Positions 26,495 to 46,486 of a stretch of 64,000 bases of DNA are shown piece after piece. The stretch's first letter is position 1, and each line of letters opens with the position of its first letter. The notes below the pieces were generated by a model that saw only the letters and a list, made by a program, of their open reading frames with translations, searched no databases and was not told the origin of the DNA. The position numbers and the translations under genes are program-made. The DNA is taken from contig NZ_HE978586.1 in NCBI RefSeq assembly GCF_000311985.1, forward strand, positions 22,913 through 86,912, given 5' to 3'. Origin of the DNA: Kallipyga massiliensis ph2 (lineage in GTDB: Bacteria; Bacillota; Clostridia; Tissierellales; Peptoniphilaceae).

Positions 26495-26900
26495 GTCGTG
26501 TTGGTTGGGCATATTTGGACCAACCAACACGATGTTTTGCGGGAGATTTATGGGAAGAATAGTGGTGGTTGGGCGTTTTTGGACAAATCAACACTATGTT
26601 TTGGGGGTGATTTGGGGGGAAGAATAGTGGTGGTTGGCCGTTTCTGAGCAAATCAACACTATGTTTTTGGAGAGATATGGGAGAAGAATAGTGGTGGTTG
26701 GCCGTTTTTGGGCAAATCAACACTATCTTTTGTGGAAGATTTGGGAGAAGAATAGTGGTGGTTGGCCGTTTTTTGACCAATCAACACTATGTTTTTGAGG
26801 GAAGAATAGTGTTGATTGGCCATTTTTAGGCATATCAACACTATTGCCTATAAAAAGATCTAGTGGTGGTTTGTCCATTTTGGGGGAACCAACACGAACA
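26495..26900. repeat. Array of seven AGTGTTGGTT-type hairpin repeats
   Basis: Seven imperfect inverted repeats start near 26497, 26560, 26625, 26689, 26753, 26807 and 26861 (period 54-65 bp). Each has 12-13 bp arms of the type ATAGTGTTGGTTG/CAACCAACACTAT around a 12-13 nt T-rich loop. G-rich spacers resemble one another. The first unit has CGTG/CACG at its base where the others have AGTG/CACT, a paired change. No protein reading is credible. Confidence 0.88.
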
Positions 26901-30086: not shown

Positions 30087-31535
30087 TTATTTCATCATCT
30101 GCTCAAAATAAGAAATGAGCTTATGATATTCTGCCGTCTGTAAATCAAGTTTCTCATATCCATCTTGTTTGATCAGAAGGACCGTCCGGCAGACTTTCAG
30201 TAATAGTTCGATGTCATGCGTAATAATAAGTGTCGGGCGACCTTTGGCAAGTTCAAAGATAAGCTCGGCGATTTTATCCATGTGCATGTAATCCAAACCG
30301 CTGGTCGGCTCATCCAAAATAAGAATTTGCTTTTCACTCAAAAAAGCATTGGCGAGAGCCAGCCTTTGCTTTTGCCCGCCGGATAAGTTTTGCGGATGCT
30401 CGCTGCGTTTATTCCAAAGATCAATATGCTTAATGATCCAAGAGACCTCTGCCAAATAAGCATCGCTTATTTTTTTGCCGTTCGCGAGCGCCTCGTTTTC
30501 TACGGTATCAAAAAACAGCTGGTAGTCTACATCCTGCATCATGTAGTAGGCATTTTTCAGTCGTTCTCGCTGAGTTTTTCCCCATGAAATATTTTGCTTC
30601 TTGCCGGCAAGTCCGCAGAGAACACGACCTAAACTGCTTTTTCCGATACCATTTGTGCCGACAATCCCCATGATTTCATCGGAATGTAAGTCAAAGGATA
30701 AATTCGAGATGAGTTCTTTTTTGCCTACAGAGACATGAACATCCTTCGCAGAAAAAACACGCTCACCTGTCTTTGTCGTGTTGTGCGGAACAAGTGCGGA
30801 AAAATCTATCGTTCGAAGTCCCAAGTCTTTGCAATCGGATGATTTCAGTTCGCCCGCATCAAATTCTTTGATAAAAGTTCCGTCTTTCATGACATAGAGC
30901 TTATCGTAGAGATCCTCCAAAAAATATAGTCGGTGTTCGGCGATGATGATGGTTCTACCCGATGCTTTGAGCAATTTCAGGATGCCTTGCAAATCTCGGA
31001 TACCTTCTTGATCAAGGGAAGCTGAAGGCTCATCAAAGAAAATAATCTTTGTGTCATAAACTAAGGTAGAGGCAATAGCTACCCGCTGTTTTTCTCCGCC
31101 GGAAAGTTCATTCAAATTTTTATCCATTAAGTGAGCAATGCTCATGTACTCAAAAGCTTTCTTCACCCGTTTTCTCAGTTCCGCCTGCGGCATGCCGAGG
31201 TTCTCTCCGACAAGGGCGACCTCATCTTCTGCCTTGCGGGTAAAGAATTGATCGGATGGATTTTGAAATACGTTGCCGATGACCTTAGCCAAGGTACCCG
31301 TCTTAAAATCATGCAGATTTTGATCCAATAATGTGACTTTGCCATCCAGTGTGCCTTCATACTGATCCGGTATGAGTCCGTTCATCACTCTGGTAAGCGT
31401 TGTTTTTCCGCAGCCGGAATTACCGGTGAGTACGACCAGTTTTCCCGGTGCGATCGCAAAATGAATAGCATGCAAAGATGACTTTTCTGCTCCTTGATAG
31501 GTGAAGCGCTCAATATTGACTTTCATGATGTCCAT
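30087..31535 (-). CDS. ECF transporter double ATPase (EcfA-EcfA'), unit A
   Basis: A 482-residue protein with two ABC domains. The first has GNSGCGKTTL, LSGGEKQRVAIASTL and IIFFDEPSASLD; the second has GTNGIGKSSLGRVL, LSGGQKQRLALANAF and LILDEPTSGLD. This fused arrangement energises ECF-type importers together with EcfT. The chosen ATG follows GGGAG at 7 nt; a second ATG at 31526 overlaps the EcfT stop. It is the last gene of the minus-strand cargo of unit A. Confidence 0.9.
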   Translation of the reverse strand: MDIMKVNIERFTYQGAEKSSLHAIHFAIAPGKLVVLTGNSGCGKTTLTRVMNGLIPDQYEGTLDGKVTLLDQNLHDFKTGTLAKVIGNVFQNPSDQFFTRKAEDEVALVGENLGMPQAELRKRVKKAFEYMSIAHLMDKNLNELSGGEKQRVAIASTLVYDTKIIFFDEPSASLDQEGIRDLQGILKLLKASGRTIIIAEHRLYFLEDLYDKLYVMKDGTFIKEFDAGELKSSDCKDLGLRTIDFSALVPHNTTKTGERVFSAKDVHVSVGKKELISNLSFDLHSDEIMGIVGTNGIGKSSLGRVLCGLAGKKQNISWGKTQRERLKNAYYMMQDVDYQLFFDTVENEALANGKKISDAYLAEVSWIIKHIDLWNKRSEHPQNLSGGQKQRLALANAFLSEKQILILDEPTSGLDYMHMDKIAELIFELAKGRPTLIITHDIELLLKVCRTVLLIKQDGYEKLDLQTAEYHKLISYFEQMMK

Positions 31536-32221
31536 AGTGCAACTCCCAAAAGCGCCACGCCGGCAAACAGGCTGATGCCATCTGCGAATTTAAAGCGCAT
31601 ATCATAATAACTGGTTTTTTCTCCTTCATACTCGATACCTTTGGCAATAATTGAAGAGACAAGCGTTTCGCTGACATGCAGACACTTATATACCAAAGGA
31701 ACAAAGTACAGCTCAAAAGTGCGGACGGGATGCAAAAGGGAAGCATGAAAGCCGCGGATTTTCATACCGTTTCGAATCTCATGCAAGCGCAGGCCAATTT
31801 CATCCATAAAACGCAAAGCTGCAATCATGGCTACACTAACGGTGTTGGGCATATGAAGCTTGCGAAAACAGGCTAAGATTTTCGATGGGCTGGTAAGAAT
31901 CAATACAATGCCAATATTAAAGATCGGTATGAAGCGGGTAATGAGTGCAAAAAGTCCTATAAAAATGCCTGTGACATATCCCAAATCAGCGAAGGCCAAA
32001 AAATACATCATGCCATAGGAAACAGAAAAAACAATAATCTGTCTAAGGAAGAGACCTGTCGAGGCATTTAAAGCAATCAACAACGTCAGAACAAGCACAG
32101 CCCAATAGACCGTTTGATTGCCAAAAAAGACTTGGAAGGACACCAGAATCGTAAGCGCGAAGAGCGTATACGGATGCAGCTGTCCTTCCTCCTTTTTCTT
32201 TAGAGCTGATTTCTTTATCAT
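31523..32221 (-). CDS. ECF transporter transmembrane protein EcfT, unit A
   Basis: A 232-residue membrane protein with about five helices and the cytoplasmic coupling helices typical of EcfT, including the short Arg-Gly type motif in NGMKIRGFHAS and the related AKGIEYEG. It couples the double ATPase to the substrate-binding S component encoded just upstream, which it overlaps by 1-4 bp. Confidence 0.85.
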   Translation of the reverse strand: MIKKSALKKKEEGQLHPYTLFALTILVSFQVFFGNQTVYWAVLVLTLLIALNASTGLFLRQIIVFSVSYGMMYFLAFADLGYVTGIFIGLFALITRFIPIFNIGIVLILTSPSKILACFRKLHMPNTVSVAMIAALRFMDEIGLRLHEIRNGMKIRGFHASLLHPVRTFELYFVPLVYKCLHVSETLVSSIIAKGIEYEGEKTSYYDMRFKFADGISLFAGVALLGVALWTS

Positions 32222-32802
32222 CAGCTAAGCCTGCTTTGTTTACTATTCTTTTCAAAAAACTTGTTATTGATGAAAAGCCCGAAGCGGCCGGCGATAAGCT
32301 CCAAAACAATGTTTACCAAAACGCAAATCACTATTACATTTCCGGTATAGCTGGCCACCATCATTTGCGCTTGCTCTAAACTCATGCTGCTGACAAAGCG
32401 TGCAATGTTTTCGGCACCCAACAACACAACAAATAGAATCGGATGCATGGCGTAAATAAACATTGATGCGCTGAAAGCCATGGCAATACGGTTTTTATTG
32501 CTGTAATCACCTACAATCAGTTCAGCTATGATACCGGCAACAACACAAATCGGTGTTGCAATCCAATAGCCCATTGCAATGTATAAGAGACCGATAATCA
32601 GCCAAAAGAGAAACGATGCACCTCGTTTTTGCACCTTGCGTGCCATGATGACATAGACCGGTGCAACAAAGAAAGCACCAAATCCTGCGGATACATAAAG
32701 TGAAACCACGCCTAAAAGTCCCGTCAGCATACCGATGCCCATAGCCAGAACAAAGCCAATGACTCCAAGCACTGCAATTTGTACCACATTTTTAAGTTTC
32801 AT
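32221..32802 (-). CDS. ECF S component, Trep_Strep (TIGR02185) type, unit A
   Basis: A 193-residue protein with about six hydrophobic helices, translated from ATG after AAGGAGG. Position directly before EcfT and the double ATPase, size and topology identify it as an S component; the likely subgroup is Trep_Strep, often found next to YbtP/YbtQ-like pairs. S components bind the imported small molecule. Linkage to exporter-fold importers suggests a metal chelate or metallophore, but this is inferred. Confidence 0.7.
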   Translation of the reverse strand: MKLKNVVQIAVLGVIGFVLAMGIGMLTGLLGVVSLYVSAGFGAFFVAPVYVIMARKVQKRGASFLFWLIIGLLYIAMGYWIATPICVVAGIIAELIVGDYSNKNRIAMAFSASMFIYAMHPILFVVLLGAENIARFVSSMSLEQAQMMVASYTGNVIVICVLVNIVLELIAGRFGLFINNKFFEKNSKQSRLS

Positions 32803-32823
32803 AAAATCCTCCTTAAATGTTTT

Positions 32824-34554
32824 TTATATCTTCCAAGACTCAGCCGTTTTCCGAGCCTGAAGGAACCTGGAATAAATACCGTCTTTGGCGGCAAGTTCGT
32901 TATGTGTGCCACTCGCCACTACTTTGCCTTCATCAATCACTAAAATTTGATCGGCGTTTTCAACTGTTTTCAAGCGATGAGCAATCATAATGATGGTTTT
33001 ATCTTTCATTAAGCTGTTCATAGCCTGCTGAAGCTTATCTTCGTTTTCCGGATCGACATTGGCTGTTGCTTCATCGAATATGATGATGGGCGCATCTTTG
33101 AGGATGGCTCTTGCAATAGAGATACGCTGTTTTTCACCACCAGAAAGAGATGCACCGCCTTCTCCGATTACCGTTTTATAGCCTTCCGGCAAACTCATGA
33201 TAAAATCATGGCAAGCTGCTTTTTGAGCAGCTTGAACGACTTCTTCATGCGTGGCATTCATGTTTCCAAATTTGATATTGTTTTCAATGGTGTCTTGGAA
33301 CAAATAGACGCTTTGGAACACCATAGAGATCTGATCCATCAAAGAAGTCAACGTATAGTCCCGAATATCATGTCCTCCAATTTTGATGCTTCCTGCATTG
33401 ACATCCCAGAAACGGGCAATTAAATTACAAACCGTTGTTTTCCCGGATCCAGAAGGGCCTACGATGGCCGTGGTTGTTTTTGCCGGAACGGTAAAGCTTA
33501 CATCATGCAAAATTTCTTTGCTTCCATACGAAAAGTCAATATTTGCTACCTTTATGGAGGCTTTTTTCGGACGGATGTCTTCACCATGAATATCCATAAC
33601 CGGCATCTGTTTTAGGTTTTCTACCTGATCAATAGAACTGGATACCACACGCAAAACAGCCATAGATGAACCGGCGGAATCAATCTGGGCAAAAATCATA
33701 AAGGAAATGATAACGGACATCAGAGCATTTTCCGGAATCATAGCTCCTTGCACGTAAAGGTAAATAGCTACAACGATAATCAAAATGCTAAAGAGCTTAA
33801 GCACAAAATCCTGGGCCATATTGTAAGGCGTAAACATTTTTTCAATAGCAAGGTTGGTCTTCTTGTTACGACGAATTGCCGCATGAACCTTTTTATCACC
33901 TTTCCCTGTCAGATTAAAGGATTTAATAATGGACATTCCCTTAATCTGTTCAAGGACGGCTTCCACCAGTTCTGCTTGCGCTTCTTGGCGTTTCGGTGCA
34001 AGATGCGCCGTCTTTTTCTCCATCGCCGAGGTAACCCACAAATAAATCAGTGTACCGACAATAACGATGAGACCGATACGCCAATCCCAGATCAAGGTTA
34101 TTAAAGTAAACACAAAAGCATTGAGAAAGCCTCCCATGATATTGATCAGCACAACCGGAGCTGTGTTTTCTACATCACCGAGAACCGTAGTAAGCGTTCC
34201 TACAATATTGCCGGTGTTTGCTTCATCAAAATAACCCATAGGCACGGTCTTCATTTTGTTTGCGACCGCAAGTCTCTGCCGAGCCACCATGAAGTAGCCG
34301 GCATGTGTTTGCTCGAGCTGAGCAAAGTAGTTGGTAAGAGCACGTCCGAAGATGCTGATAAGGAGAAAAAGGAGTGCCAAAAGAGCAGGGTTTATGCCGA
34401 TATCTTTTCCCAGCATCCCTACGATGACAAAGTAAACAGCACCAATTTGAAACATATAGAAAATAGCAAAAAGAAAGGAAACGGCGATGGACTTTCTAAT
34501 ATTGCCCTGTTCCTCTCCGGCAAAATGTCCTATTTTTTTCAGTGCGTTCAACAT
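32824..34554 (-). CDS. Exporter-fold ABC protein, YbtQ/IrtB-like, unit A
   Basis: A 576-residue half transporter: six helices (residues 20-310), then an ABC domain with GPSGSGKTTVCNL, LSGGEKQRISIARAIL, IIFDEATANVDPENE and IAHRLKT. It starts one base after its partner gene stops, so they should form a heterodimer. In Yersinia (YbtPQ), mycobacteria (IrtAB) and the equibactin locus such pairs import siderophores despite the exporter fold. No siderophore synthesis genes are nearby. Confidence 0.88.
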   Translation of the reverse strand: MLNALKKIGHFAGEEQGNIRKSIAVSFLFAIFYMFQIGAVYFVIVGMLGKDIGINPALLALLFLLISIFGRALTNYFAQLEQTHAGYFMVARQRLAVANKMKTVPMGYFDEANTGNIVGTLTTVLGDVENTAPVVLINIMGGFLNAFVFTLITLIWDWRIGLIVIVGTLIYLWVTSAMEKKTAHLAPKRQEAQAELVEAVLEQIKGMSIIKSFNLTGKGDKKVHAAIRRNKKTNLAIEKMFTPYNMAQDFVLKLFSILIIVVAIYLYVQGAMIPENALMSVIISFMIFAQIDSAGSSMAVLRVVSSSIDQVENLKQMPVMDIHGEDIRPKKASIKVANIDFSYGSKEILHDVSFTVPAKTTTAIVGPSGSGKTTVCNLIARFWDVNAGSIKIGGHDIRDYTLTSLMDQISMVFQSVYLFQDTIENNIKFGNMNATHEEVVQAAQKAACHDFIMSLPEGYKTVIGEGGASLSGGEKQRISIARAILKDAPIIIFDEATANVDPENEDKLQQAMNSLMKDKTIIMIAHRLKTVENADQILVIDEGKVVASGTHNELAAKDGIYSRFLQARKTAESWKI

Positions 34555-34555
34555 G

Positions 34556-36301
34556 TTATTTACCTCCTTTCGCGCCTACATGAGCAAGCCACATACTTTG
34601 ATAGAGCTTTGACTCTTCAAGCAGCTCTTGATGTGTGCCATGATTTTCGATTTTTCCTTCTTCTATGACGAAGATTTGATCGGCTCCCGTGATGGTGGAA
34701 AGTCTATGAGCGATTGCGATAACGGTCTTCCCCGCAACAAGTTGTCCCAGTGCTTGCTGCATCAGCACTTCATTCTCGGGATCAATGTATGCTGTTGCTT
34801 CGTCGAAAATGACAATCGGGGCATCTTTAAGCATGGCGCGCGCAATAGAAATCCGCTGACGCTCACCTCCAGAAAGATGAGTGCCTCCTTCTCCTGCAAT
34901 CGTGTCATAACCGTTTTCCAGATTCTCAATAAAGTCATGACAGCCCGAAAGCTTCGCAATGTGCTCCACGTCTTCATCCGTAGCACTCAAGCAACCCATG
35001 CGAATGTTGTTGCGAATGCTTTCGTTAAAGAGAAAATTATCCTGAGATACAAAGGAAACGCTGTTATAGAGTTGTTCTAAGGGAACCTTTTTCGCATTGA
35101 TGCCACCGATAGCGATGCTTCCTTTTTCCACATCCCAATAGCCGGCTATCAGTTTTGCTAAGGTCGATTTGCCGCCGCCGGATGGACCTACAAATGCATT
35201 AAAGCTCCCGTCTTTTATGCTTAAAGAAACATCATGAATAATTTCTTTGGCATCTTCACCGGATTCATAGGAAAAAGAAACATGATCGAGAACAATGTCG
35301 TGTTTGTTGAACGATATCGGGTGTTTTTCATGCTGCTGTTCTTCGGCAGCTAAGAGCGCATCAATCTGACCAACAACCGTTCCCACCCGAGCCAAACTGT
35401 CCACAAAATTCATGGCAGCCATCAAAAGGCCCGAAAGGGAGAAAGAGAGGATCACCGTCGTCAGAAATGTGCCTCCGTCCAAACTTCCACTTTGATAAAA
35501 AAGATATCCTGCCGGCAAAACAGCAAGCAGAGTTGTAGGAATTATCGATTTAGACAGCGACATTAAGAACTGAACGCTTTTCATCCAGTCGTAGTAGTAT
35601 TGGGCATTTGCGAGAATTTTCTCGGAAAACTTGTGATAGCTGCTCTCTCCTTGATTGAAAGCTTTAATAACTTCAATGCCTCCGGCATATTCCGCAATAG
35701 CGGCATTCATCTGAGCGCCAACCTGGACCGAGCCGGCATATTGCTTGCCGTAGCTTTTCATAATGATACTCATAAAAAACATTCCGATCGGGATGGATAC
35801 CAAAGATAACAGTGCCATGCGCCAGTCCAGTACAATGAGATAAATCAAAATACAGAGCGGCCCCACCATATTTGCCGTCATTTCCGGAATAAGATGAGCA
35901 ACCGGACGCTCCAAACTTTCCACCTGATCTACAATGAGCTGCTTCCATTCACCGCTGGGTGTCGCTGTTACTTTCCCCAGCGAGAGTTTTGGAAGCTTGT
36001 GCAGCATTTTTTCGCGCAGTTCCTGTAAAAGTTCAAAAGTGACTTTATGGGAAACGGAAAGCGACAGTGAATATAGAACGGATTTCACGGCATAGCCTAA
36101 AAACCCGACAACGCAGGCTTTCATATAAGCACTGAAGTCTGTCACACCATTAAATAAGTTTGTCAGAACCTGTCCCGCAGCCACGTAGGGAACGATACCA
36201 CCTAAAACTCCAAGTACCGCAAGACTCACAGAGAGTTTTAGTCCGGCGTGCTGACTGGCAGCCAGTTCCCACAGACGCTTTATGGGACTTTGTTTTTTCA
36301 T
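34556..36301 (-). CDS. Exporter-fold ABC protein, YbtP/IrtA-like, unit A
   Basis: A 581-residue half transporter with six helices and an ABC domain: GPSGGGKSTLAKL, LSGGERQRISIARAML, VIFDEATAYIDPENE and IAHRLST. The Walker A variant with GGGKS is shared with the corresponding subunit of unit B (41535-43322), supporting a common origin. The upstream 73 bp holds a TetR operator. Confidence 0.88.
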   Translation of the reverse strand: MKKQSPIKRLWELAASQHAGLKLSVSLAVLGVLGGIVPYVAAGQVLTNLFNGVTDFSAYMKACVVGFLGYAVKSVLYSLSLSVSHKVTFELLQELREKMLHKLPKLSLGKVTATPSGEWKQLIVDQVESLERPVAHLIPEMTANMVGPLCILIYLIVLDWRMALLSLVSIPIGMFFMSIIMKSYGKQYAGSVQVGAQMNAAIAEYAGGIEVIKAFNQGESSYHKFSEKILANAQYYYDWMKSVQFLMSLSKSIIPTTLLAVLPAGYLFYQSGSLDGGTFLTTVILSFSLSGLLMAAMNFVDSLARVGTVVGQIDALLAAEEQQHEKHPISFNKHDIVLDHVSFSYESGEDAKEIIHDVSLSIKDGSFNAFVGPSGGGKSTLAKLIAGYWDVEKGSIAIGGINAKKVPLEQLYNSVSFVSQDNFLFNESIRNNIRMGCLSATDEDVEHIAKLSGCHDFIENLENGYDTIAGEGGTHLSGGERQRISIARAMLKDAPIVIFDEATAYIDPENEVLMQQALGQLVAGKTVIAIAHRLSTITGADQIFVIEEGKIENHGTHQELLEESKLYQSMWLAHVGAKGGK

Positions 36302-36337
36302 GTTTTCACCTCCTCACGATCACATATAAAGCAAATT

Positions 36338-36354
36338 AGATAACTAAGTTATCT
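36338..36354. promoter_or_regulatory. TetR operator copy 2, before the ABC genes
   Basis: AGATAACT-A-AGTTATCT, a perfect 17-bp palindrome between the tetR stop and the first ABC gene. Its core is identical to the operator in the tetR promoter. Confidence 0.8.
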
Positions 36355-36374
36355 CTTGGATAAAAAATATAGAG

Positions 36375-37013
36375 CTACGGGCTGCGATACTTTTCCCAAC
36401 CCGCATTGAAAAAAGTAGACATCGTCTTTGCCATACTGAGAAGCTGTTCTTTATCGGATGCGTGTACAACGAGTTCAGAGATGGCGTTGAAAAATGCATG
36501 ATTGATGATATGAACACTTTGCTTGGTCATAATGGAATCCGCGTTTTCTTTCCCATGGATCATCTCTAAAATCGACCAGTCATTACGATCCTCAATTTCG
36601 ATGATCTTATCTAAGAAATACTCATACTTTGTGCCATAGGATTTAAAAATAAGAAGCTCAAAGATATCTTTATGTGCATAGAAAAACTCAACACTTTTAA
36701 GCGTCCCTTCTTGTTTGAGTTCAAGAACTTTTAAGATTTTTTCTTTGGGAACGGGAAATTCCGTGCCGTAGGTGGAAAAACTTTCTTTTTCGTAGTAGTT
36801 ATAAATTTCATTGATCTTATCTGCTAAAGGCTCTACCAACTTTGCAAACAAATCTTCCTTATCTGTAAAATGCTTATAGAAAGCTCCTGTTGTCACGCCA
36901 GCTGATTTACAAATTCTTCTCATATTTGCTTTTTCATAGCCTTCCTCCAAGAAGGCATCCAGACCACTTTTTAGTATGTTGGCATGAGTTTCTTCAAAAT
37001 TACCTGTAGTCAT
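36375..37013 (-). CDS. TetR-family repressor of unit A
   Basis: A 212-residue TetR regulator. The N-terminal helix-turn-helix is in MRRICKSAGVTTGAFYKHF near residues 30-50; the rest is a ligand-binding helical domain. The ATG at 37013 follows GGGAGG. Two identical-core palindromes, one over its own promoter and one before the ABC genes, predict autoregulation and control of the whole minus-strand cargo. Confidence 0.92.
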   Translation of the reverse strand: MTTGNFEETHANILKSGLDAFLEEGYEKANMRRICKSAGVTTGAFYKHFTDKEDLFAKLVEPLADKINEIYNYYEKESFSTYGTEFPVPKEKILKVLELKQEGTLKSVEFFYAHKDIFELLIFKSYGTKYEYFLDKIIEIEDRNDWSILEMIHGKENADSIMTKQSVHIINHAFFNAISELVVHASDKEQLLSMAKTMSTFFNAGWEKYRSP

Positions 37014-37038
37014 AGATCCTCCCATCAAAAATAGTTCT

Positions 37039-37065
37039 TGTTTAGATAACTAAGTTATCTAAACA
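37039..37065. promoter_or_regulatory. TetR operator copy 1, over the tetR start region
   Basis: TGTTTAGATAACT, a central A and AGTTATCTAAACA form a perfect 27-bp palindrome. It begins at the -10 and covers the likely transcription start. Confidence 0.88.
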
Positions 37066-37092
37066 TTACACCCAGCTGTTGCTATCTGTCAA
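37065..37092 (-). promoter_or_regulatory. Promoter of tetR and unit A cargo
   Basis: On the minus strand TTGACA (37092-37087), a 16-nt spacer and TGTAAT (37070-37065). The 27-bp operator follows directly. Confidence 0.7.
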
Positions 37093-37175
37093 GAGAAATA
37101 TTTTTACGTCAATAATTATGACCAGAAGAAGACCTGGTTTTATATGATCGTGATGCTATTTGTCCTCTCGAATTG

Positions 37176-37280
37176 TTTTCGTGCCCCCATGCCTATTTTT
37201 CGTACCCCTGAGTATGAGTTTCGTACCCTAAGCGGCTGTGCCGTTAAAATGTATCAAATATGGCGTTTTGTTCTCAAAGA
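37176..37280. repeat. Element right-end repeat, copy 1 (right edge of unit A)
   Basis: Positions 37197-37262 are identical to 45194-45259 and similarity extends to 37280. Three CGTACCC-type boxes start at 37180, 37201 and 37222, 21 bp (two helical turns) apart, resembling recombinase- or transposase-binding sites. Confidence 0.85.
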
Positions 37281-37584
37281 TGCCCTTGACGGAAAAATAG
37301 AGCTTATCGTCACCAAATCGGTCTAGCGTTTTGCCAGAAATACCGTGGACAGCTTAACCACCATCCGAAAGCTCAAAAAGATGCAGGCAACCAAAGCCGA
37401 TATCAAGTTCTGCCTGAAGCAGCTACAAAAACAAGACAGGCTTCTGCAAACATTCGACGAACAGAGCTTCTGTGCTCTTGTAGATCATATCACGGTATTC
37501 AGCAAAGAAGATATCCGCATAACCTTCAGAAACGGCTCAGAAATCAAGGCCTATAAAATGTCCGAATGGAGCTTTTTATTTTAA
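37270..37584 (+). pseudogene. Serine recombinase pseudogene, left edge of unit B
   Basis: In one frame the translation gives ALDGKIELIVTKSV, a TAG stop at 37324-37326, then RFARNTVDSLTTIRKLK, which is the conserved catalytic-domain segment with Ser replaced by the stop. It then jumps directly to the C-terminal part (FCALVDHITVFSKEDIRI), so several hundred central residues are missing. The gene is dead, with a nonsense codon and a large internal deletion. It belongs to large serine recombinases of mobile elements. Confidence 0.85.
37461..37536 (+). repeat. 76-bp direct repeat, copy 2
   Basis: Nearly identical to 29987-30062, lying in the C-terminal codons of the recombinase pseudogene. Confidence 0.85.
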
Positions 37585-37631
37585 TCGGAGTTGAATGAAA
37601 TGCCCTTAAAGAAGTTTAATCAAATGTGCTA

Positions 37632-37649
37632 AGTTAGCTTATCCTAACT
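37632..37649. promoter_or_regulatory. DtxR-like palindrome before unit B cargo
   Basis: AGTTAG-N6-CTAACT lies 18 nt before the first cargo start codon. The spacing and TTAG/CTAA content recall DtxR/IdeR boxes. No dtxR gene is in the window, so the regulator would be encoded elsewhere. Confidence 0.4.
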
Positions 37650-37666
37650 CAATGGAGGTTAATCGT

Positions 37667-38257
37667 ATGAAAAAATCATCTGGAATTAAAGCAAAAGATT
37701 TGATCACCACAGGTATTTTTACTGCCATTATGTTTGCTCTTTGCATGGCAGTAGCAATGCTGGGTTACATGCCAATATTTATTCCGCTTTTAGGCATCAT
37801 CGTGCCACTTATTGACGGTATTCCCTATGTGTTGTTTGTGAGCAAAACGAAAAAGTTTGGGCTTATAACCATTATGGGATTTTTGCTTGGACTACTAATC
37901 GGGGTCATGGGAATGGGCGTATATGCACCCTTCACCGGACTTATCGCGGGCCTTTTAGCGGATTCGTTATTAAAATCCTCGGATTATTCCAGTGCAAAAA
38001 AAGTAATTCTCAGCAAAGGTATTTTTTCAATATGGCTGATCGGCAACTATATTCCTATTGTTATTAGCCGTGATGCTTATTATCAAGATTTAGCACAAGG
38101 CGGTTATGGAAAGGCCTATGCGGATGCACTTATGAAGCTTATTCCGGACTGGAGTTTGATCCCATTACTTGTAGGCATATTTATCGCGGGCATCCTTGGT
38201 GCTTTGATTGGACGTTCCCTTCTAAAAAAGCAGTTCGAACGCGCCGGGATTGTCTAA
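37667..38257 (+). CDS. ECF S component, Trep_Strep (TIGR02185) type, unit B
   Basis: A 196-residue protein with about six helices (ITTGIFTAIMFALCMAVAML opens the first). The ATG at 37667 follows GGAGG at 8 nt. It heads the plus-strand cargo and precedes EcfT by 6 nt. It is only distantly similar to the unit A counterpart, so the two units probably recognise different ligands. Confidence 0.75.
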   Translation: MKKSSGIKAKDLITTGIFTAIMFALCMAVAMLGYMPIFIPLLGIIVPLIDGIPYVLFVSKTKKFGLITIMGFLLGLLIGVMGMGVYAPFTGLIAGLLADSLLKSSDYSSAKKVILSKGIFSIWLIGNYIPIVISRDAYYQDLAQGGYGKAYADALMKLIPDWSLIPLLVGIFIAGILGALIGRSLLKKQFERAGIV

Positions 38258-38263
38258 TCCATC

Positions 38264-38992
38264 ATGCAGCCTATTCAAACGCGATCAAAAAAAGAATTTC
38301 TTGATCCTCGAACAAAAATACTTCTTGTCTTTACCATCGCTGCTGTCGTTGTGGGAGGAGGACATGGATATTGGCTGGCTCCGATTCGAATACTCCTTAT
38401 ATCCGTTCCCTTTATACTGTTTCTTATTGAAAGCAAGTGGAAATATGCCGCCATATATGCCATTTTATTCATAGCGGCCTATGTAGGGCAGATATATTTT
38501 TTACCGCTCGTTACCGGATTTTTAGGTTTTCTGTTGGTGGCTTTTTGCGGTATTTTTGTTCGCATGATGCCGGGGCTTGCCATGGGTGCCTATTTGCTCA
38601 GCTCAACGAAAATCAGCGAGTTTATGGCAGCAATGGAACGCATGCGTGTTCCTGCCCAGATTACGATTCCACTTTCCGTTGTTTTTCGCTTTTTTCCTAC
38701 CATCCTGGAAGAGTATCACGCCATAGCCGATGCAATGAAAATGAGAGGCATCTCTTTAAGTGGTTCAAAACCGTGGAAAACTGTGGAATATCGTCTGGTC
38801 CCGCTGATGGTGTCCTGCGTGAAAATCGGTGACGAACTTTCCGCATCTGCTTTAACACGTGGCTTAGGCGCGCCGATTAGGCGCACCAATGTCTGTAAAA
38901 TTGGATTCCATTTGCAGGATATACTCTTTCTGATGCTTTGCCTGGTTAGCTTGTGTGTACTTATCTTTTATAAGATCGGAGGTTCGTCATGA
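38264..38992 (+). CDS. ECF transporter transmembrane protein EcfT, unit B
   Basis: A 242-residue protein with DPRTKILL at the N-terminus, four to five helices, and the cytoplasmic Arg-Gly coupling motifs in DAMKMRGIS and SALTRGLGAP. It overlaps the double ATPase gene by 4 bp (ATGA). Confidence 0.88.
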   Translation: MQPIQTRSKKEFLDPRTKILLVFTIAAVVVGGGHGYWLAPIRILLISVPFILFLIESKWKYAAIYAILFIAAYVGQIYFLPLVTGFLGFLLVAFCGIFVRMMPGLAMGAYLLSSTKISEFMAAMERMRVPAQITIPLSVVFRFFPTILEEYHAIADAMKMRGISLSGSKPWKTVEYRLVPLMVSCVKIGDELSASALTRGLGAPIRRTNVCKIGFHLQDILFLMLCLVSLCVLIFYKIGGSS

Positions 38993-40458
38993 TAGAAATA
39001 AGAAATTTTTCTTTTTCCTATACATCCTCTGACCAAAGTACACTTAAAAATATCAATCTGAGAATCCCTGACGGTCAATGCGTTCTTTTAACGGGAATGT
39101 CCGGATGCGGTAAGACGACCATAATACGAGCTTTAAATGGACTTATTCCTCATTACTATGAAGGAAAAAGTTTGGGAAGTGTATCTGTTTTTGGTAAAAG
39201 TCCACAAACGCTTGCTCTATATGAACTCGCGCCGATTGTTGGCTGCGTATTTCAAAATCCCCGCAGCCAGTTTTTTAATGTAGATACGGATAGTGAACTG
39301 GTTTTTGCCTGTGAAAATTTAGGTATGTCAAAAGAAGATATTCGATTGCGCTTTAACAAAATCGTATCCTCTTTGCATATTGAGAGATTGATGGGAAAGA
39401 GTTTGTTTCATCTTTCTTCCGGAGAAAAACAAAAAATTGCTTGCGCCTCTGTGGCTGTGCTTTCTCCCAATCTTGTTCTTATGGATGAGCCAAGTGCTAA
39501 TCTTGATTTTTCCGCTATCGCAAATTTGCAAGGGATGATACAATTTTGGAAAGATGAGGGAAAAACAATCATTATTGCCGAGCATCGCATCCATTATTTA
39601 AAAAATTTAGTGGATCGTGTGATATTGCTTGATGACGGCGAGATGATCGGAGACTATCAAGGCGTTAACTTTTTCGAGTTACCGAGTTCGTTTTATGAAA
39701 CGCATGGGATACGTATTCCGGACATAAAACAACTTTCATTTGGAGCTTTCGATCCATTATCGCCGACGAAAGATTTTTTAGAGCTTTACGATGTGAATTT
39801 TTCCTACCACAATACGCAAAGCGTATTGAATATTCCGAAATTTCAACTTCCTCTGGGAAGGGCAACAGCTCTCATAGGTTCAAACGGTGCTGGCAAGTCC
39901 ACTTTTGCCAAACTTCTTTGCGGACTGGTGAAAAAAGATAAAAGCAAACTAATCTATAAAAACAAGACTTTTCCACCTAAAAAAAGACGTGATCTGACCT
40001 ATCTTGTGCAACAGGAAGTGAATCATCAGTTGTTTACAGAAACGGTTATGGAAGAGCTTTTGATTTCTCAGGAAGAAGAAAATCATACTGTAGCCGAGGC
40101 AATACTCCAAGAACTCCATCTGGATGGCTTTAAAGATGAACATCCCATGTCTCTTTCAGGAGGGCAAAAGCAGCGTGTTGCAGTAGCCTCCGCTCTGATG
40201 AGCAATCGAGATGTTTTAATCTTTGATGAGCCGACCAGTGGTCTTGATTTGGAAAACATGCAGCGTTTTGCACAAATTATAAAGAGAATAATTCTTTTAG
40301 GAAAAACATGCTTAATTATTACTCATGATCCGGAGTTTATCGCTCTTGCCTGTCAGCATATTGTTGAAATGAAAGATGGGCAGATTAAGGAGCAATATGA
40401 TTTGAACCAGACGACAGTACAGAAATTGCAGAATTTTTTTAGAGAGGAGGTTTCATGA
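38989..40458 (+). CDS. ECF transporter double ATPase (EcfA-EcfA'), unit B
   Basis: A 489-residue protein with two ABC domains. The first has GMSGCGKTTIIRAL and a slightly altered signature LSSGEKQKIACASVAV, with LVLMDEPSANLD; the second has GSNGAGKSTFAKLL, LSGGQKQRVAVASALM and LIFDEPTSGLD. Replacement of the second Gly in the first signature by Ser is unusual and suggests an asymmetric ATPase pair. It overlaps AraC by 4 bp. Confidence 0.9.
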   Translation: MIEIRNFSFSYTSSDQSTLKNINLRIPDGQCVLLTGMSGCGKTTIIRALNGLIPHYYEGKSLGSVSVFGKSPQTLALYELAPIVGCVFQNPRSQFFNVDTDSELVFACENLGMSKEDIRLRFNKIVSSLHIERLMGKSLFHLSSGEKQKIACASVAVLSPNLVLMDEPSANLDFSAIANLQGMIQFWKDEGKTIIIAEHRIHYLKNLVDRVILLDDGEMIGDYQGVNFFELPSSFYETHGIRIPDIKQLSFGAFDPLSPTKDFLELYDVNFSYHNTQSVLNIPKFQLPLGRATALIGSNGAGKSTFAKLLCGLVKKDKSKLIYKNKTFPPKKRRDLTYLVQQEVNHQLFTETVMEELLISQEEENHTVAEAILQELHLDGFKDEHPMSLSGGQKQRVAVASALMSNRDVLIFDEPTSGLDLENMQRFAQIIKRIILLGKTCLIITHDPEFIALACQHIVEMKDGQIKEQYDLNQTTVQKLQNFFREEVS

Positions 40459-41417
40459 CAATGAACGCCTTAGGCAATATGGGAGATAATATCAAAATGC
40501 AGAAACGAGAAGATGGCAGTTCTATCTTTTTTTTGCATGATGAAACCGGCTCGGGGACGATGACTTGCTACTCCCTTTTCGAAGGCGTCTTTGTACTTTT
40601 TAATGACTTTCATCTCAAAACTTGTTACTCAGCTTTCAAGCCACATCAATCGATGTTTACCATTGATTACTGTAAAGAAGGAAGAATAGAAAATAGCATT
40701 CATCCGGAAAAGTACACTTATATCAGTGCTGGTGATTTGCAGATGGAAGTACGCACCCAGCATTACGGAGAGTTTTACTTTCCACTTAAACACTATCATG
40801 GAATCACAATCAGCATTCTCTTTCCACAGGGTTCTGAAACGATAAGGACATTATTAAACGGATTTCCGGTTGATGTGGAAAATTTGAAAAACAAATTCTG
40901 TAGAAAATCAAAAGCCTATGAAACATTTATTATGCGTTCCAATCCACAAACGAACCATATCTTAGCCGAAATTTATCAAATTCCTGAAAAAGATAGAGTT
41001 CCTTATCTGAAAATTAAGGTATTAGAACTTCTTCTTTATTTGGATGGTATGGATATTTCTTTGGCAAAACAACAAAACGACTTTTTAAATTTCGCCCAAG
41101 TTACTAAGATCAAATCTTTGGAAAAAAGGTTAACTTCACATCTTGACCGATTTTATACGTTAACCGAATTTTCGAGTTTCATTGATATGCCACTCACATC
41201 TATGAAAAAAGCGTTCAAAATTATTTATGGAAAATCGATTTATGCCTATATGAAAGAGTATCGCGTTAATGCAGCGGCTTTGCTCTTACAAGATTCATCG
41301 AAGAGCATACTTGAAATTGCGAATGATTTAGGCTACCAAAACCCATCCAAATTTTCAGCTGCCTTCAAGTCCCTTCGTGGTTTAACGCCACGAGACTATA
41401 GAAAAACTCTTGTCTGA
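40455..41417 (+). CDS. AraC-family regulator of unit B (YbtA-like position)
   Basis: A 320-residue regulator. The C-terminal 100 residues hold two helix-turn-helix motifs, ending in LEIANDLGYQNPSKFSAAFK and GLTPRDYRK. The N-terminal 200 residues are a ligand-sensing domain. The start follows GAGGAGG. AraC regulators beside YbtP/YbtQ-like transporters (YbtA in Yersinia) activate them when the siderophore is taken up; the same logic is inferred here. Confidence 0.88.
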   Translation: MTMNALGNMGDNIKMQKREDGSSIFFLHDETGSGTMTCYSLFEGVFVLFNDFHLKTCYSAFKPHQSMFTIDYCKEGRIENSIHPEKYTYISAGDLQMEVRTQHYGEFYFPLKHYHGITISILFPQGSETIRTLLNGFPVDVENLKNKFCRKSKAYETFIMRSNPQTNHILAEIYQIPEKDRVPYLKIKVLELLLYLDGMDISLAKQQNDFLNFAQVTKIKSLEKRLTSHLDRFYTLTEFSSFIDMPLTSMKKAFKIIYGKSIYAYMKEYRVNAAALLLQDSSKSILEIANDLGYQNPSKFSAAFKSLRGLTPRDYRKTLV

Positions 41418-41465
41418 ACGGGGCTGTTTTCCCATTAGAGGGTGGAATGGACCACACCTTATTTC

Positions 41466-41516
41466 ATAAACTGCTTTAGAGAATACGTTGAATTCTCTTC
41501 GACCAAAACAGTTTAG
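41466..41516 (+). promoter_or_regulatory. Nested hairpin between araC and the ABC pair
   Basis: AGAGAAT/ATTCTCT (41478-41484 and 41492-41498) is enclosed by AAACTG/CAGTTT. It sits just before a GAGGTG site and a TTG start, so it could be a processing or translational control structure, or an AraC site. Confidence 0.45.
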
Positions 41517-41534
41517 AAATGAGGTGTTTTTATT

Positions 41535-43322
41535 TTGAAAATCAAAAAAAGAATATTGCCGATTGTTCTGTCTTTTGCAGACAGTGCAAAACCACAGTTT
41601 ATACTATCTATTCTATTTGCCGTGCTAAGCGTTTTCTGTGGTTTTTTGCCTTATTTTGGGATCTATCAAGTCCTTCTTGTGTTTTTTTCAAAAGTACAAG
41701 ATAGCAGTCAAATTTCTGTGCATTCACTTGTCCCTTGGTTCCTTTTGTGCGTCGCAGGATATGGCCTTAAAGTCTTGTTTCACACAATCTCAACGAATCG
41801 GTCTCATCATGCCGCCTATCATATTCTTAAAAATATACGAAGCCGACTGACCGATAAATTAATGCGATTGCCGCTTGGAACTGTAACAGGAAAAACCGCC
41901 GGTGAACTCAAGAGCATTATTGTTGACCGTGTAGAAACGATTGAATTACCTTTGGCACACTTGATACCGGAAGGCTTATCGAATCTGATTTTTCCTGTTA
42001 TCGTATTTATTTTCATGCTGGCATGGAATTGGAAAGTCGCATTGGCATCTGTTGCCTGCATTCCTTTTGGTGTGCTCGCTTATGCGATCGTCATGAAGAC
42101 ATTTAACAGCAAATATGACAGCTATATGAAAGCTGCTAAAAAAGTGGACAGTGTGATTGTGGAATATGTGGAAGGCATTGAGGTTGTCAAGGCTTTTAAT
42201 CAATCCAGTAAATCCTATAAAAAATATACGAATGCAATCACGTCCTTTAAAGATTTTACTTTAGATTGGTTTCGCTCCACTTGGCCGCTGATGAATTTTG
42301 CAGCGGCGATACTGCCGAGCACACTGTTAGGCATTCTTCCGGCAGGTATCTTGCTTTATGCTACAGGAAATCTAACACCTGCTGAACTAACGCTTACCAT
42401 CATCCTTTCCTTAAGTCTGGTAGGCCCCGTTTCATACTTTACGACAGCTGTCAACAGCTATAAATCCATTGAATACGCTCTGCTGGATGTTCAGAAAATC
42501 TTAGACTTGCAAGAGCTTCCGGAAGAAAAAGAGTCGAAAAAACTGTCCGGTTATGACATCTCATATAAGGATGTCACATTTTCTTATGAAGAGGCTCAAG
42601 CACCTGTCGTCAAAGATTTTTCTTTAGAAATACCCGAGGAATCTTTCGTAGCTTTGGTAGGTCCTTCCGGCGGAGGAAAATCTACCTTATCTCGATTGCT
42701 TTTACGTTTTTGGGATGTGAATCAAGGATGTATTTGTATCGGAGGAAAGGATATACGCTCTTTGCCACTTGGACAACTCTCAGGACTCATCAGCTATGTT
42801 TCTCAGGATAATTTTCTTTTCAATATGTCCCTTTTTGAAAATATCCGCGTAGGCAATCCGGCCGCAACAAAAGAAGAGGTGTTTCAGGCTGCTCATATGG
42901 CACAATGCGAAGAGTTTATTTCACGTTTAGAAGAAGGTTGGGACACGCCGGCTGGAGAAGCGGGGGATAAACTGTCAGGCGGTGAAAAACAGCGTATAGC
43001 GATTGCCAGGGCAATACTAAAAGATGCCCCTATCGTTGTTTTGGATGAAGCAACCGCATTTACTGATCCGGAAAATGAACTTCAACTCCAAAAATCGATT
43101 AATGAACTAACGCGTGGCAAGACGCTGTTAGTGATTGCCCATAGGCTTTCTACGATAAAAAATGCCGACAAAATCGTTGTTTTGCAGGAAGGCACAAAAG
43201 TGACGGAAGGAACGCAGAATGAACTTCTGAAGGCTTGCCCCCTTTACCGCTCCATGTGGGAAGCACATGTTGGTGCCAAAGCATGGGCGGCATCCAATCA
43301 AGAGAAAGGAGCGGATAAATAA
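41535..43322 (+). CDS. Exporter-fold ABC protein, YbtP/IrtA-like, unit B
   Basis: A 595-residue half transporter with six helices in residues 15-310 and an ABC domain: GPSGGGKSTLSRLL, LSGGEKQRIAIARAIL, VVLDEATAFTDPENE, IAHRLST. It begins at TTG, 9 nt after GAGGTG; no ATG is available nearby. It is the counterpart of 34556-36301 in unit A, sharing the GGGKS Walker A. Its stop is followed directly by the partner's start. Confidence 0.87.
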   Translation: MKIKKRILPIVLSFADSAKPQFILSILFAVLSVFCGFLPYFGIYQVLLVFFSKVQDSSQISVHSLVPWFLLCVAGYGLKVLFHTISTNRSHHAAYHILKNIRSRLTDKLMRLPLGTVTGKTAGELKSIIVDRVETIELPLAHLIPEGLSNLIFPVIVFIFMLAWNWKVALASVACIPFGVLAYAIVMKTFNSKYDSYMKAAKKVDSVIVEYVEGIEVVKAFNQSSKSYKKYTNAITSFKDFTLDWFRSTWPLMNFAAAILPSTLLGILPAGILLYATGNLTPAELTLTIILSLSLVGPVSYFTTAVNSYKSIEYALLDVQKILDLQELPEEKESKKLSGYDISYKDVTFSYEEAQAPVVKDFSLEIPEESFVALVGPSGGGKSTLSRLLLRFWDVNQGCICIGGKDIRSLPLGQLSGLISYVSQDNFLFNMSLFENIRVGNPAATKEEVFQAAHMAQCEEFISRLEEGWDTPAGEAGDKLSGGEKQRIAIARAILKDAPIVVLDEATAFTDPENELQLQKSINELTRGKTLLVIAHRLSTIKNADKIVVLQEGTKVTEGTQNELLKACPLYRSMWEAHVGAKAWAASNQEKGADK

Positions 43323-45071
43323 ATGTTTACCATGATCAAACGTATCGTTGATTGGACAGGTTCTTATAAAAAAAGATTTTACTGGGGCATCGTCTGGTCG
43401 TTATTAGAGAATTTCTTTATTGCTTTTCCCTTGATGGGAGCGGCTTATGTTCTGAACCTTATGCTGCAGGATACGGCAGGGCTCAGGAGTTTGCACACAA
43501 AGGAAGCTTTATGGGCGCTTTTGTTTATGGTTTTCTGTGTTTTAGGTCGTTTCTTCTTCTCCTATCTGCGGGCTGTTTTTCAAGAAAGCATTGCTTATGA
43601 AAAAACAGCCGAGGAGCGCATCGAGATAGGCGATATATTAAAGCGAGTTTCCCTTGGCTTTTTTGATCGTCACAAGACCGGTGAAATTGCGGGAGCAGTT
43701 ACAACCGACTTATCTACTTTGGAATTGTATGCCATGAAGATGACGGATACGGTTATCGGAGCTTATTTGCAGACTCTTGCCATGATTCTATGCATCCTTT
43801 TTTTCTCATGGAAAGTGGCAACTGTTGCTTTAGTGGGTGTATTATGCTCTGCATTTTTCCAGCGCCGACTGGTGAAAGATAGCCGGGCAAACACAGCGGT
43901 GCGCCAGAAAGCCAATGATAGCATGATTAATGCAACACTCCAATTTATCCGTGGAATAACGGTTATTAAATCGTATGGGAGAACAGGAAGCGCCGTTGCG
44001 GAACTACAAAAATCTTTTTCCGATCAACGTGACATCAACATCAAAATAGAAAATGCTTACATGTGGACGAACGGTCTTTATCAGTTAAGCCTAAAATTGA
44101 CCTCCGTAGCAATCGCTTTTATGGTATGCCTTCAAACCATTCACGGTGAAATTTCTCTGCCTATCATGCTCATGATAGTGATCTTTTCATTTGTTATGTT
44201 TGCTCGTTTGGAAACGGTAACCGATGCTTCTCACACCTTGGAAATGATGCGAGCAGCGCTGGACAAACTTCAAACAATTAAGACGGCAAACTATATCGAC
44301 GAAGATTCAAAAGACATTGTTTTAAACAATTTTGACATTTCTTATCAGAACGTATCTTTCGCTTACGATCACAAAAATGTTATCGAGAATGTGAGCTTTT
44401 CTCTTCCCGAAAATTCAACTTTAGCCATCGTGGGACCCTCCGGTTCCGGTAAAACAACGCTCTGTAATTTGCTTGCCAGATTCTATGATGTCAATCATGG
44501 GTCTATTTCTATCGATGGACATGATATCAGAGAAATGACTTGTGATACTCTGCTGCAATATATTTCGATCGTTTTTCAGCACGTCTATCTGTTTCATGAC
44601 ACGATATTGAACAACATTCGTTTCGGCAGACCGGAAGCCAGCATCGAGGAGATTAAAGAAGCTGCCAAAAAGGCGGCTTGTCATGAATTTATTGAGAATT
44701 TACCAAACGGCTATAACACGATGCTTGGCGAAGGCGGATCGACACTTTCAGGAGGAGAAAAACAACGCTTATCCATTGCTCGTGCCATACTAAAAGATGC
44801 ACCTATCGTTATATTAGATGAAGCAACTGCCAGTGTTGATCCTGAAAACGAGCATTTCATTCAACAAGCCATATCCGCCTTGGTCAAAGGAAAAACATTG
44901 ATCGTTATTGCCCACAGGCTAAACACAATACAGTTTGCTGACAATATATTAGTTATAGACCAAGGAAAGCTGGTACAGCAGGGAACGCATGAACAGTTAA
45001 TAGAAGAAGAAGGAATATATAAAGATTTCCAGAAAATACTCAATAAGACAAGTAACTGGCAACTCAGTTGA
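43323..45071 (+). CDS. Exporter-fold ABC protein, YbtQ/IrtB-like, unit B
   Basis: A 582-residue half transporter with six helices and GPSGSGKTTLCNLLARF, LSGGEKQRLSIARAIL, VILDEATASVDPENE and IAHRLNT. It starts at the base after the stop of its partner, so a heterodimer is expected. It is the last gene of unit B and closely resembles 32824-34554 in motif order and ending (SNWQLS versus AESWKI). Confidence 0.88.
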   Translation: MFTMIKRIVDWTGSYKKRFYWGIVWSLLENFFIAFPLMGAAYVLNLMLQDTAGLRSLHTKEALWALLFMVFCVLGRFFFSYLRAVFQESIAYEKTAEERIEIGDILKRVSLGFFDRHKTGEIAGAVTTDLSTLELYAMKMTDTVIGAYLQTLAMILCILFFSWKVATVALVGVLCSAFFQRRLVKDSRANTAVRQKANDSMINATLQFIRGITVIKSYGRTGSAVAELQKSFSDQRDINIKIENAYMWTNGLYQLSLKLTSVAIAFMVCLQTIHGEISLPIMLMIVIFSFVMFARLETVTDASHTLEMMRAALDKLQTIKTANYIDEDSKDIVLNNFDISYQNVSFAYDHKNVIENVSFSLPENSTLAIVGPSGSGKTTLCNLLARFYDVNHGSISIDGHDIREMTCDTLLQYISIVFQHVYLFHDTILNNIRFGRPEASIEEIKEAAKKAACHEFIENLPNGYNTMLGEGGSTLSGGEKQRLSIARAILKDAPIVILDEATASVDPENEHFIQQAISALVKGKTLIVIAHRLNTIQFADNILVIDQGKLVQQGTHEQLIEEEGIYKDFQKILNKTSNWQLS

Positions 45072-45172
45072 AGAAATTTATTTTAATTTAGCAACTTCAA
45101 TTATTATGAAAAGGGGGACTCCTGCATGCTCATGTTTGCAGTCAGTCCCTTTTGTTTTAGGGTTAGCGCATT

Positions 45173-45277
45173 AGTTTTCGTACCCCTTGCTCATTTTCGT
45201 ACCCCTGAGTATGAGTTTCGTACCCTAAGCGGCTGTGCCGTTAAAATGTATCAAATATGTTGTTTTGTTCTCATAGA
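45173..45277. repeat. Element right-end repeat, copy 2 (right edge of unit B)
   Basis: The same 66-bp core as 37197-37262, 7,997 bp away, with CGTACCC-type boxes at 45179, 45198 and 45219. It abuts the truncated hsdM gene, marking the right border of the inserted block. Confidence 0.85.
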
Positions 45278-45969
45278 CCTTGTTGATTTCCGTCTTCCCC
45301 ACTGTCCCAATCCGGGTGAGGAGCTCGGATACGTCCGCTGGGGTGAAGAATTCCCCACCTGACTTCCCCGCATTGGAAGCATACATGGTCATGAGGTATT
45401 CGTAGGCATCACCGAAGGCATCGGTGACATGGCTCTTCACCTGACCAAGATTCATATCTGCCACCCCATCCAGGAGCTTGCAGAGCTTCTCATTCCTCTT
45501 GGCCACAGTGGAGCCCAGCTTATTGTTATTCACATCAAAGTCATCGAAGAGGCCAGAAAAGTTGCTTTCCGACTCATTCCCTTGGGCCGACTCTTCAATG
45601 GAGTGGAAGATTTTTTCCAAGGTCTCGTTGAGGTTGTCATCCCCTTTGGCTCGGACCCGGACATTGCAGAATATCTGGGAGGGATAGATAAAGAAGCCCT
45701 TCTCCTCTACCAGGCCTTGCCTGGCCTCCTCCGCCTCTTCATCTGACATCTGGGCATAGTCAAAGTCAGGTTTGCCGGCAGCGACCTCCCCTTCATTAAT
45801 GTAGTTGGTGATGTTTTCCGAAATATAGCGATAGAACATGGTTCCAAGGACATAATTCTTTAAGTCCCAACCATCCACGTCACCCCTGAGCTCATCAGCA
45901 ATGGCCCAGATAGCCCGGTGGAGTTTCCCCCCCCCCCCGCTCCTCTTGTCTTCGATTCTCGATGGCCAC
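45278..45969 (-). pseudogene. hsdM: Type I restriction methyltransferase HsdM, 3'-truncated, with G12 tract
   Basis: The translation contains DGWDLKNYVLGTMFYRYIS, GGEFFTPADVSELLTRI and TEINKVY, all characteristic of HsdM. It is cut just before the expected DPxCGSG SAM-binding motif, where the element end begins. The true start seems to be GTG at 45969 (AIENRRQEER), after AAAGGAAAAGACAA. A run of 12 C (45927-45938; G12 in the gene) then shifts the frame; 11 or 8 G would join it to LHRAIWAIADELRG. The gene is thus truncated and also off-frame, with a classic phase-variable tract. Confidence 0.8.
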
Positions 45970-46154: not shown

Positions 46155-46486
46155 GTAGTGTTGGTTGAGGTTTTTTAGCAAACCACCACTATAGCAATTA
46201 GGGGTGAAATAGTGTTGGTTTGCTATTTTTCGACAATCAACACTATATTTTTGAGGGCTTCATAGTGTTGATTTGGCATTTTATCAAAGCCAACACTATT
46301 CTTTTCATCCGAAACGCTATTCTTTATTCGGAAAAGTAATGTCTATTCTCAATTTTCAGCAAACTAACACTATAGATCATTCAAAATGTGTAGTGGTAGT
46401 TTGCCTTTTTTTTTGAAAACAACCACTATTGACTAGGCAAAAGCCATAGAGTTGATTCTACGTTTTTGACGAATCAACTCTATATT
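46155..46486. repeat. Second array of AGTGTTGGTT-type hairpin repeats (5 clear units, 1 degenerate)
   Basis: Hairpins start near 46156, 46209, 46262, 46391 and 46448, with one decayed copy near 46340. Arms follow the consensus of the 26495-26900 array. The last unit has TAGAGTTGATTC/GAATCAACTCTA, in which the T-to-A change of one arm is matched in the other. Spacers are AT-rich here instead of G-rich. Confidence 0.85.

What the first reader, a model, noticed from the sequence alone, without database searches (positions are those of the whole stretch)
46155..46486. Second array of the same hairpin family, at the island's other side
Units share the consensus of array 1, with independent compensatory changes (TAGAGTTGATTC/GAATCAACTCTA) and very different spacers. 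The two arrays bracket the lipoprotein, restriction fragments and both transport units. They may mark integration or recombination hot spots, or be footprints of a structured-repeat element.
Basis: partly seen in the sequence, partly recalled or inferred. Interest (0 to 1): 0.7.

Follow-up and report, generated by a model that had tools for sequence, protein, structure and literature searches.

The report
Helix-phased palindrome arrays between genes
This is one of about 23 clusters of short mirror-image DNA sites scattered between the genes of a gut anaerobe and its closest relatives; their letters and their spacing, in steps of one turn of the double helix, look preserved for an unidentified DNA-binding protein rather than for RNA folding.

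Summary
The array is real: six palindromic units at 46156-46482, of the same family as array 1 (seven units, 26496-26897); dinucleotide shuffles give 0-1 unit per 64 kb. The host genome (probably Kallipyga massiliensis) holds about 100 units in 23 intergenic clusters. Only two of 39 genera in its family have them, and none of 397 other genomes of the phylum.

Three results decide what they are. Unit starts lie 53-55, 63-66 or 74 bp apart, never 57-62, so spacers change by one helical turn. Between orthologous arrays the 11-bp arms are 94% identical, against 81% for spacers and 78% for centres, with few length changes. The variable arm letters do not covary between the two arms (243 units). These are helix-phased half-sites for a double-stranded-DNA-binding protein, not RNA hairpins. 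No RAYT transposase gene exists; the binder is unknown.

The hot-spot idea has moderate support: gene-content breakpoints fall at 15 of 18 arrays against 12 of 33 other long intergenic gaps, though a first analysis was not significant.

The parts
46156..46191 (-). array 2 unit 1 (36 bp palindrome, arms TAGTGTTGGTT / AACCACCACTA)
46210..46245 (-). array 2 unit 2
46263..46298 (-). array 2 unit 3
46337..46372 (-). array 2 unit 4, decayed left arm, preceded by a 38-bp spacer (spacer class about two turns longer)
46391..46428 (-). array 2 unit 5 (38 bp, longest centre)
46447..46482 (-). array 2 unit 6, with the same rare letter change in both arms (TAGAGTTGATT / AATCAACTCTA)
26496..26897 (-). array 1, seven units at 26496, 26560, 26625, 26689, 26753, 26807, 26861; orthologous in G001 C1:52491-52892 with matching spacings

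Best explanation
Each array is a row of 36-38 bp palindromic binding sites. A site is two 11-bp half-sites (TAGTG[T/G]TG[G/A]TT and its mirror image) around a 13-16 bp variable, AT-centred core. Sites are set 54 bp apart, or one or two helical turns further. The most likely mechanism is that a sequence-specific, probably dimeric, double-stranded-DNA-binding protein of this lineage sits on each palindrome. Neighbouring dimers then contact each other on a fixed face of the helix and build an oriented nucleoprotein patch at about 20 intergenic places on the chromosome. Since flanking genes share no theme and arrays occur between divergent, convergent and co-directional genes, a chromosome-structural role (nucleoid organisation, topology or segregation) is more likely than control of particular promoters. 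Shown: the family, the quantised spacing, selective conservation of arms and spacing, lack of arm-to-arm covariation, intergenic placement, and in two species a polarity that flips at the origin. Inferred: the protein, its dimerisation and cooperativity, and the chromosomal role.
For: Spacing: 193 neighbouring pairs in four genomes fall at 52-56 (137), 63-66 (51) or 74 (2) bp; none at 57-62 or 67-73; three larger gaps of 88, 96 and 190. The 27-29 and 37-38 bp spacers come in several unrelated sequence families, so the lengths are not one inherited spacer. Orthologous arrays: arms 94.0% identical, spacers 81.2%, cores 78.0% (arms vs spacers p = 3e-18; pairs not fully independent); in most pairs unit and spacer lengths align with almost no gaps, the gaps coming mainly from missing whole units. 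Arm letters at positions 6 and 9 are independent between the two arms in 243 distinct units (p = 0.12 and 1.0), and pairing over 69 units is 77.0% against 76.9% in shuffles. Polarity follows replication direction in 15 of 16 multi-unit arrays of G000 and 11 of 11 of G001 on the contig that carries dnaA/parB. Flanking genes are mixed housekeeping genes.
Against: No binding protein has been identified; ParB copy number and tyrosine recombinases do not single out array-bearing genomes. Polarity is confounded with gene direction, the C2:17020 array gives opposite polarity by arms and by core, and G036 arrays near its parB contig do not clearly obey it. Tandem duplication can copy one spacing many times, so the number of independent spacing events is smaller than 193. 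The frequent breakpoints at arrays would fit a recombination role as well.
Confidence: 0.6

Rival explanations
1. Recombination or integration target arrays: a recombinase, transposase or plain homologous recombination acts on the repeats, so that genes are gained and lost beside them, as proposed for the NIME/dRS3 arrays of Neisseria.
For: Breakpoints at 15/18 arrays versus 12/33 other long intergenic regions. Examples: a 5.7-kb block 35 bp from the array at C2:17020, absent in two sister species at the same junction; 5.4 kb directly beside the array at C2:179560, in place of two units; 1.08 kb in G001 26 bp from array 1; array 2 conserved only through its first unit. Dispersed arrays share sequence, e.g. 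80% over 370 bp between G000 C1:358k and G001 C2:966k.
Against: The inserted blocks examined carry cargo genes and no integrase or transposase in the ORFs found. The tyrosine recombinases of G000 lie at C1:1248723, C1:1298709 and C2:280295, away from any array. The first, length-matched test was not significant. One apparent insertion inside an array is an assembly gap. Helical phasing and arm-only conservation are not needed for homologous recombination.
Confidence: 0.2
2. REP/BIME-like mobile palindromes spread as hairpins by an IS200/IS605-type (RAYT) transposase.
For: Size, copy number, intergenic placement and clustering resemble REPs and BIMEs (PMC2817692, PMC3733652).
Against: No Y1_Tnp/RAYT gene in G000 while the control search rings in E. 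coli; no GTAG or CGTC tag as a constant end; no arm covariation, whereas palindromy is reported as preserved in REPs (PMC2817692); positions conserved between species; most flanks share no common ends.
Confidence: 0.08
3. Transcribed RNA hairpins (mRNA stability, attenuation or termination).
For: Polarity agrees with both flanking genes in 29 of 36 co-directional settings, orthologues included; arms can pair.
Against: No covariation; column 6 is mispaired in 41 of 69 aligned units. Spacer steps of 10-11 bp have no meaning in RNA. Arrays also lie between divergent genes. No Rfam match at the arrays.
Confidence: 0.06
4. Neutral minisatellite that drifts by tandem duplication.
For: Unit numbers change between species (e.g. 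5 vs 2 units at G000 C1:394146 and its counterpart).
Against: Arms are far more conserved than spacers between orthologues; several unrelated spacer families have the same quantised lengths.
Confidence: 0.04

Closest known systems
NIME / dRS3 arrays of Neisseria
   Same: Intergenic arrays of short inverted-repeat units with variable filler, many per genome, linked to genome rearrangements (PMC9778887, PMC3898611)
   Different: dRS3 is 20 bp, ATTCCC(N8)GGGAAT, separated by RS elements of 30-160 bp; here arms are 11 bp with other letters and spacers come in steps of one helical turn; no phage integrated at a unit was found
BIME-2 (REP arrays of enterobacteria)
   Same: Tandem clusters of palindromes between genes that bind host proteins (gyrase, IHF) (PMC2817692)
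   Different: REPs in BIMEs alternate in orientation and are tied to RAYT transposases; here units run head to tail, no RAYT gene is present and there is no GTAG tag
Chromosomal binding-site sets such as parS, Noc, SlmA or RacA sites (from own knowledge, not tested by sequence)
   Same: Palindromic dsDNA sites, scattered or origin-biased, acting in chromosome organisation
   Different: Those sites are short single palindromes; here there are long phased arrays of 1-8 sites with an unknown binder

Membership tests
REP/BIME | RAYT (Y1 transposase) gene in the genome | tested here: not met
   PF01797: 0 in G000, positive control in E. coli
REP/BIME | unpaired GTAG or CGTC tag at one end (PMC3733652) | tested here: not met
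   Unit ends are symmetric TAGTG...CACTA; spacers vary
REP/BIME | stem preserved by complementary changes | tested here: not met
NIME/dRS3 | 20-bp ATTCCC(N8)GGGAAT repeats | tested here: not met
   unit consensus
NIME/dRS3 | association with genome rearrangement | tested here: inconclusive
   positive, not significant
CRISPR array | near-identical repeats with unique spacers of constant length (about 26-40 bp) and cas genes | tested here: not met
   Units within an array differ in the core; most spacers are 17-18 bp; cas genes not searched
Integron attC array | attC core sites (RYYYAAC/GTTRRRY) separated by gene cassettes | tested here: not met
   GTTGGTT does not fit GTTRRRY; units are separated by 17-38 bp without genes; IntI not searched separately
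MITE / transposon-end array | common outer boundaries with terminal repeats | tested here: not met
   Array flanks are mostly unrelated; a few pairs share flanks
Phased protein-binding array | site spacing in steps of one helical turn | tested here: met
Phased protein-binding array | a protein that binds the sites | not testable with these tools
   needs pull-down or ChIP

The most novel reading that the evidence does not exclude
A lineage-specific chromosome-organising system: an unknown dimeric DNA-binding protein assembles on helix-phased, replication-oriented arrays spread over the origin-near part of the chromosome and shapes the nucleoid or its segregation, in only two genera of the family.
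Probability: 0.25. Interest if true: 0.75.

Novelty: new variant of a known kind. Interest (0 to 1): 0.52.

Why it matters
Dispersed palindromic repeats in bacteria are usually filed as mobile hairpins. Here the sequence itself argues for something else: arms and helical spacing are kept, spacer letters and stem pairing are not. If a dedicated protein polymerises on these arrays, it would be a new chromosome-structuring or boundary element in a group with little cell biology, and spacing quantisation could be used to find phased protein arrays in other genomes. It also makes testable whether such arrays focus gene gain and loss.

Tried and rejected
RNA hairpin family: Rfam finds only an FMN riboswitch in the window and covariation is absent. 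REP/RAYT: no RAYT gene. Phage or plasmid origin: no BLAST match of array 1; two viral contigs hold one single unrelated palindrome each, the same locus in both. Tyrosine recombinase next to arrays: none in G000. Extra ParB/Noc-like protein: ParB counts are ordinary. Gene theme beside arrays: none. A 280-aa gene between two arrays was looked at as a possible binder; it has no Pfam or NCBIfam match. 'Insertion' inside the array at C1:1050k is a run of N and was withdrawn. A published description was sought by sequence strings and by words: none found.

Full report
OBSERVATION. The array at 46155-46486 is real. Six units of 36-38 bp lie at 46156, 46210, 46263, 46337 (decayed left arm), 46391 and 46447. 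Array 1 has seven units at 26496-26897. A two-arm scan finds exactly these 13 units in the window; 20 dinucleotide shuffles give none in 18 cases and one in two. The unit is TAGTG[T/G]TG[G/A]TT, 13-16 variable bases with an A- or T-run in the centre, then the mirror-image arm.

HOST AND SPREAD. The genome has 1,770,670 bases in 3 contigs. This fits Kallipyga massiliensis ph2T (1,770,679 bp, 3 scaffolds; PMC3910704); the identification is an inference. A covariance model finds about 85 distinct units in 23 clusters of the own genome, and a two-arm scan of the fetched stretches gives 101 units there, 73 in G001, 27 in G002 (same genus) and 54 in G036 (another genus). A strict pattern matches 4 of 130 genomes of the family, in 2 of 39 genera, and none of 397 other genomes drawn from the phylum. 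Array 1 has no match in the phage or plasmid collections.

SPACING. Over 193 neighbouring pairs, start-to-start distances are 52-56 bp (137), 63-66 (51) and 74 (2); 57-62 and 67-73 are empty; three larger gaps are 88, 96 and 190. Spacers are thus nearly all 17-18, 27-29 or 37-38 bp. The long spacers belong to several sequence families with no evident likeness (for example TTTTTTGCTCTAAACTACTCCC-, CTGTGGCATGGAGAAGGGTGGCTCATGG, TTCTTCCCCCCAAATCACCCCCAAAACA, GAGAAGCCGGCCGCAAGATGGCCAAAGGC), so the lengths arose more than once. A circular statistic on the gaps peaks near 10.8 bp, broadly (R = 0.93). Steps of one helical turn are the signature of proteins that must face each other on double-stranded DNA.

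CONSERVATION. In ten comparisons of orthologous arrays the arms are 94.0% identical, spacers 81.2%, cores 78.0%; in most pairs the lengths align almost without gaps, gaps coming mainly from missing whole units. The comparisons share some sequences, so the p-value (3e-18) is optimistic, but the arms exceed the spacers in each of the ten. Selection therefore holds the arms and the spacing, not the spacer letters.

NOT AN RNA STEM. On 69 aligned units, pairing equals that of shuffled partners (77.0% vs 76.9%) and column 6 is mispaired in 41. In 243 distinct units the letters at arm positions 6 and 9 are independent between the two arms (p = 0.12 and 1.0). Each arm carries either allowed letter whatever the other arm carries.

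PLACEMENT AND POLARITY. Arrays are intergenic, beside mixed genes (acetate kinase, seryl-tRNA synthetase, hybrid cluster protein, transporters, surface proteins and others), in divergent, convergent and co-directional settings. dnaA lies at C1:414274 and parB at C1:403165. By the A-rich core strand, 15 of 16 multi-unit arrays on that contig point away from the origin, and 11 of 11 in G001 with parB at C2:382579. Gene direction is mostly the same, so transcription and replication cannot be fully separated; one array (C2:17020) is ambiguous, and in G036 arrays on its parB contig do not clearly follow the rule. Arrays are commoner within 320 kb of the origin (16 of 19 clusters in 44% of the contig), although several belong to one crowded region.

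GENE CONTENT AT ARRAYS. Against G001 the transport block of the window (28757-45239) is missing, and its ends are not at the arrays. The array 1 position, unit number and spacings are conserved in G001, so the arrays did not come with the island. Breakpoints of gene content nevertheless often lie at arrays: 5.7 kb beside the array at C2:17020 with the same junction in G001 and G002, 5.4 kb beside C2:179560, 1.08 kb beside array 1 in G001, and different DNA beyond the first unit of array 2. Counted with arrays masked from gene calling, 15 of 18 array regions hold a breakpoint; in the length-matched set (250-1500 bp) it is 13 of 16 against 12 of 33 other intergenic regions (p = 0.005), and 16 of 55 breakpoints in non-coding DNA lie within 40 bp of an array against 15% expected (p = 0.007). 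The first version of the test, with spurious small ORFs hiding arrays, gave p = 0.06 overall and 0.5 length-matched. I take this as suggestive. No integrase or transposase was found in the inserted blocks examined, and the tyrosine recombinases of the genome lie elsewhere.

INTERPRETATION. The best reading is a set of phased half-site arrays for a lineage-specific double-stranded-DNA-binding protein, probably with a chromosome-level role. The protein and its function are inferred. REP/BIME membership fails on the transposase, the tag and the stem; NIME/dRS3 is the closest published analogue in form and in its link to rearrangement (PMC9778887, PMC3898611) but has other sequences and filler lengths. 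Insertion sequences that target palindromic repeats are also known (PMC1525189), so an insertion-target role would not be new in kind. No earlier description of this family was found in the paper library, which does not hold most subscription papers.

LIMITS. One genome per species; drafts with gaps; only selected stretches read; gene calls are ORF-based; orthologous arrays are not independent data points.

Noticed in passing
window 32824-34554 (and neighbouring genes): A transporter protein 99% identical in Peptoniphilus, Murdochiella, Levyella, Aedoeadaptatus and also Atopobium minutum (another phylum): a very recently transferred block.
   Followed up: partly
window 45928-45938: A run of about ten C (G on the gene strand) close to the start of an hsdM fragment (45225-45878, minus strand); possibly a phase-variable restriction-modification gene.
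   Followed up: no
window 26315-26428: An FMN riboswitch ends 66 bp from array 1, so array 1 lies just upstream of the riboflavin genes.
   Followed up: no
L080:8493-8505, L080:8872-8884, L081:807-819: Another repeat (ATCAAAGTTAGGG with GCCGTCGGCGG... sequence) flanks the arrays at G000 C1:358k on both sides and at 368k, as direct copies.
   Followed up: partly
L087:11727-12581 (G000 C1:1053990-1055196): An rve-type integrase gene (IS-like block), 99.5% identical to a copy in G001, lies between two short arrays.
   Followed up: no
L087 (C1:1050536-1052150) and L088 (C2:21504-22912): Runs of N beside or inside arrays: the draft assembly breaks at these repeats.
   Followed up: yes
L118:505-539, L119:12164-12198: The same single 35-bp palindrome with matching arms occurs right after a stop codon in two viral contigs, without an array; probably chance or a terminator.
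   Followed up: partly
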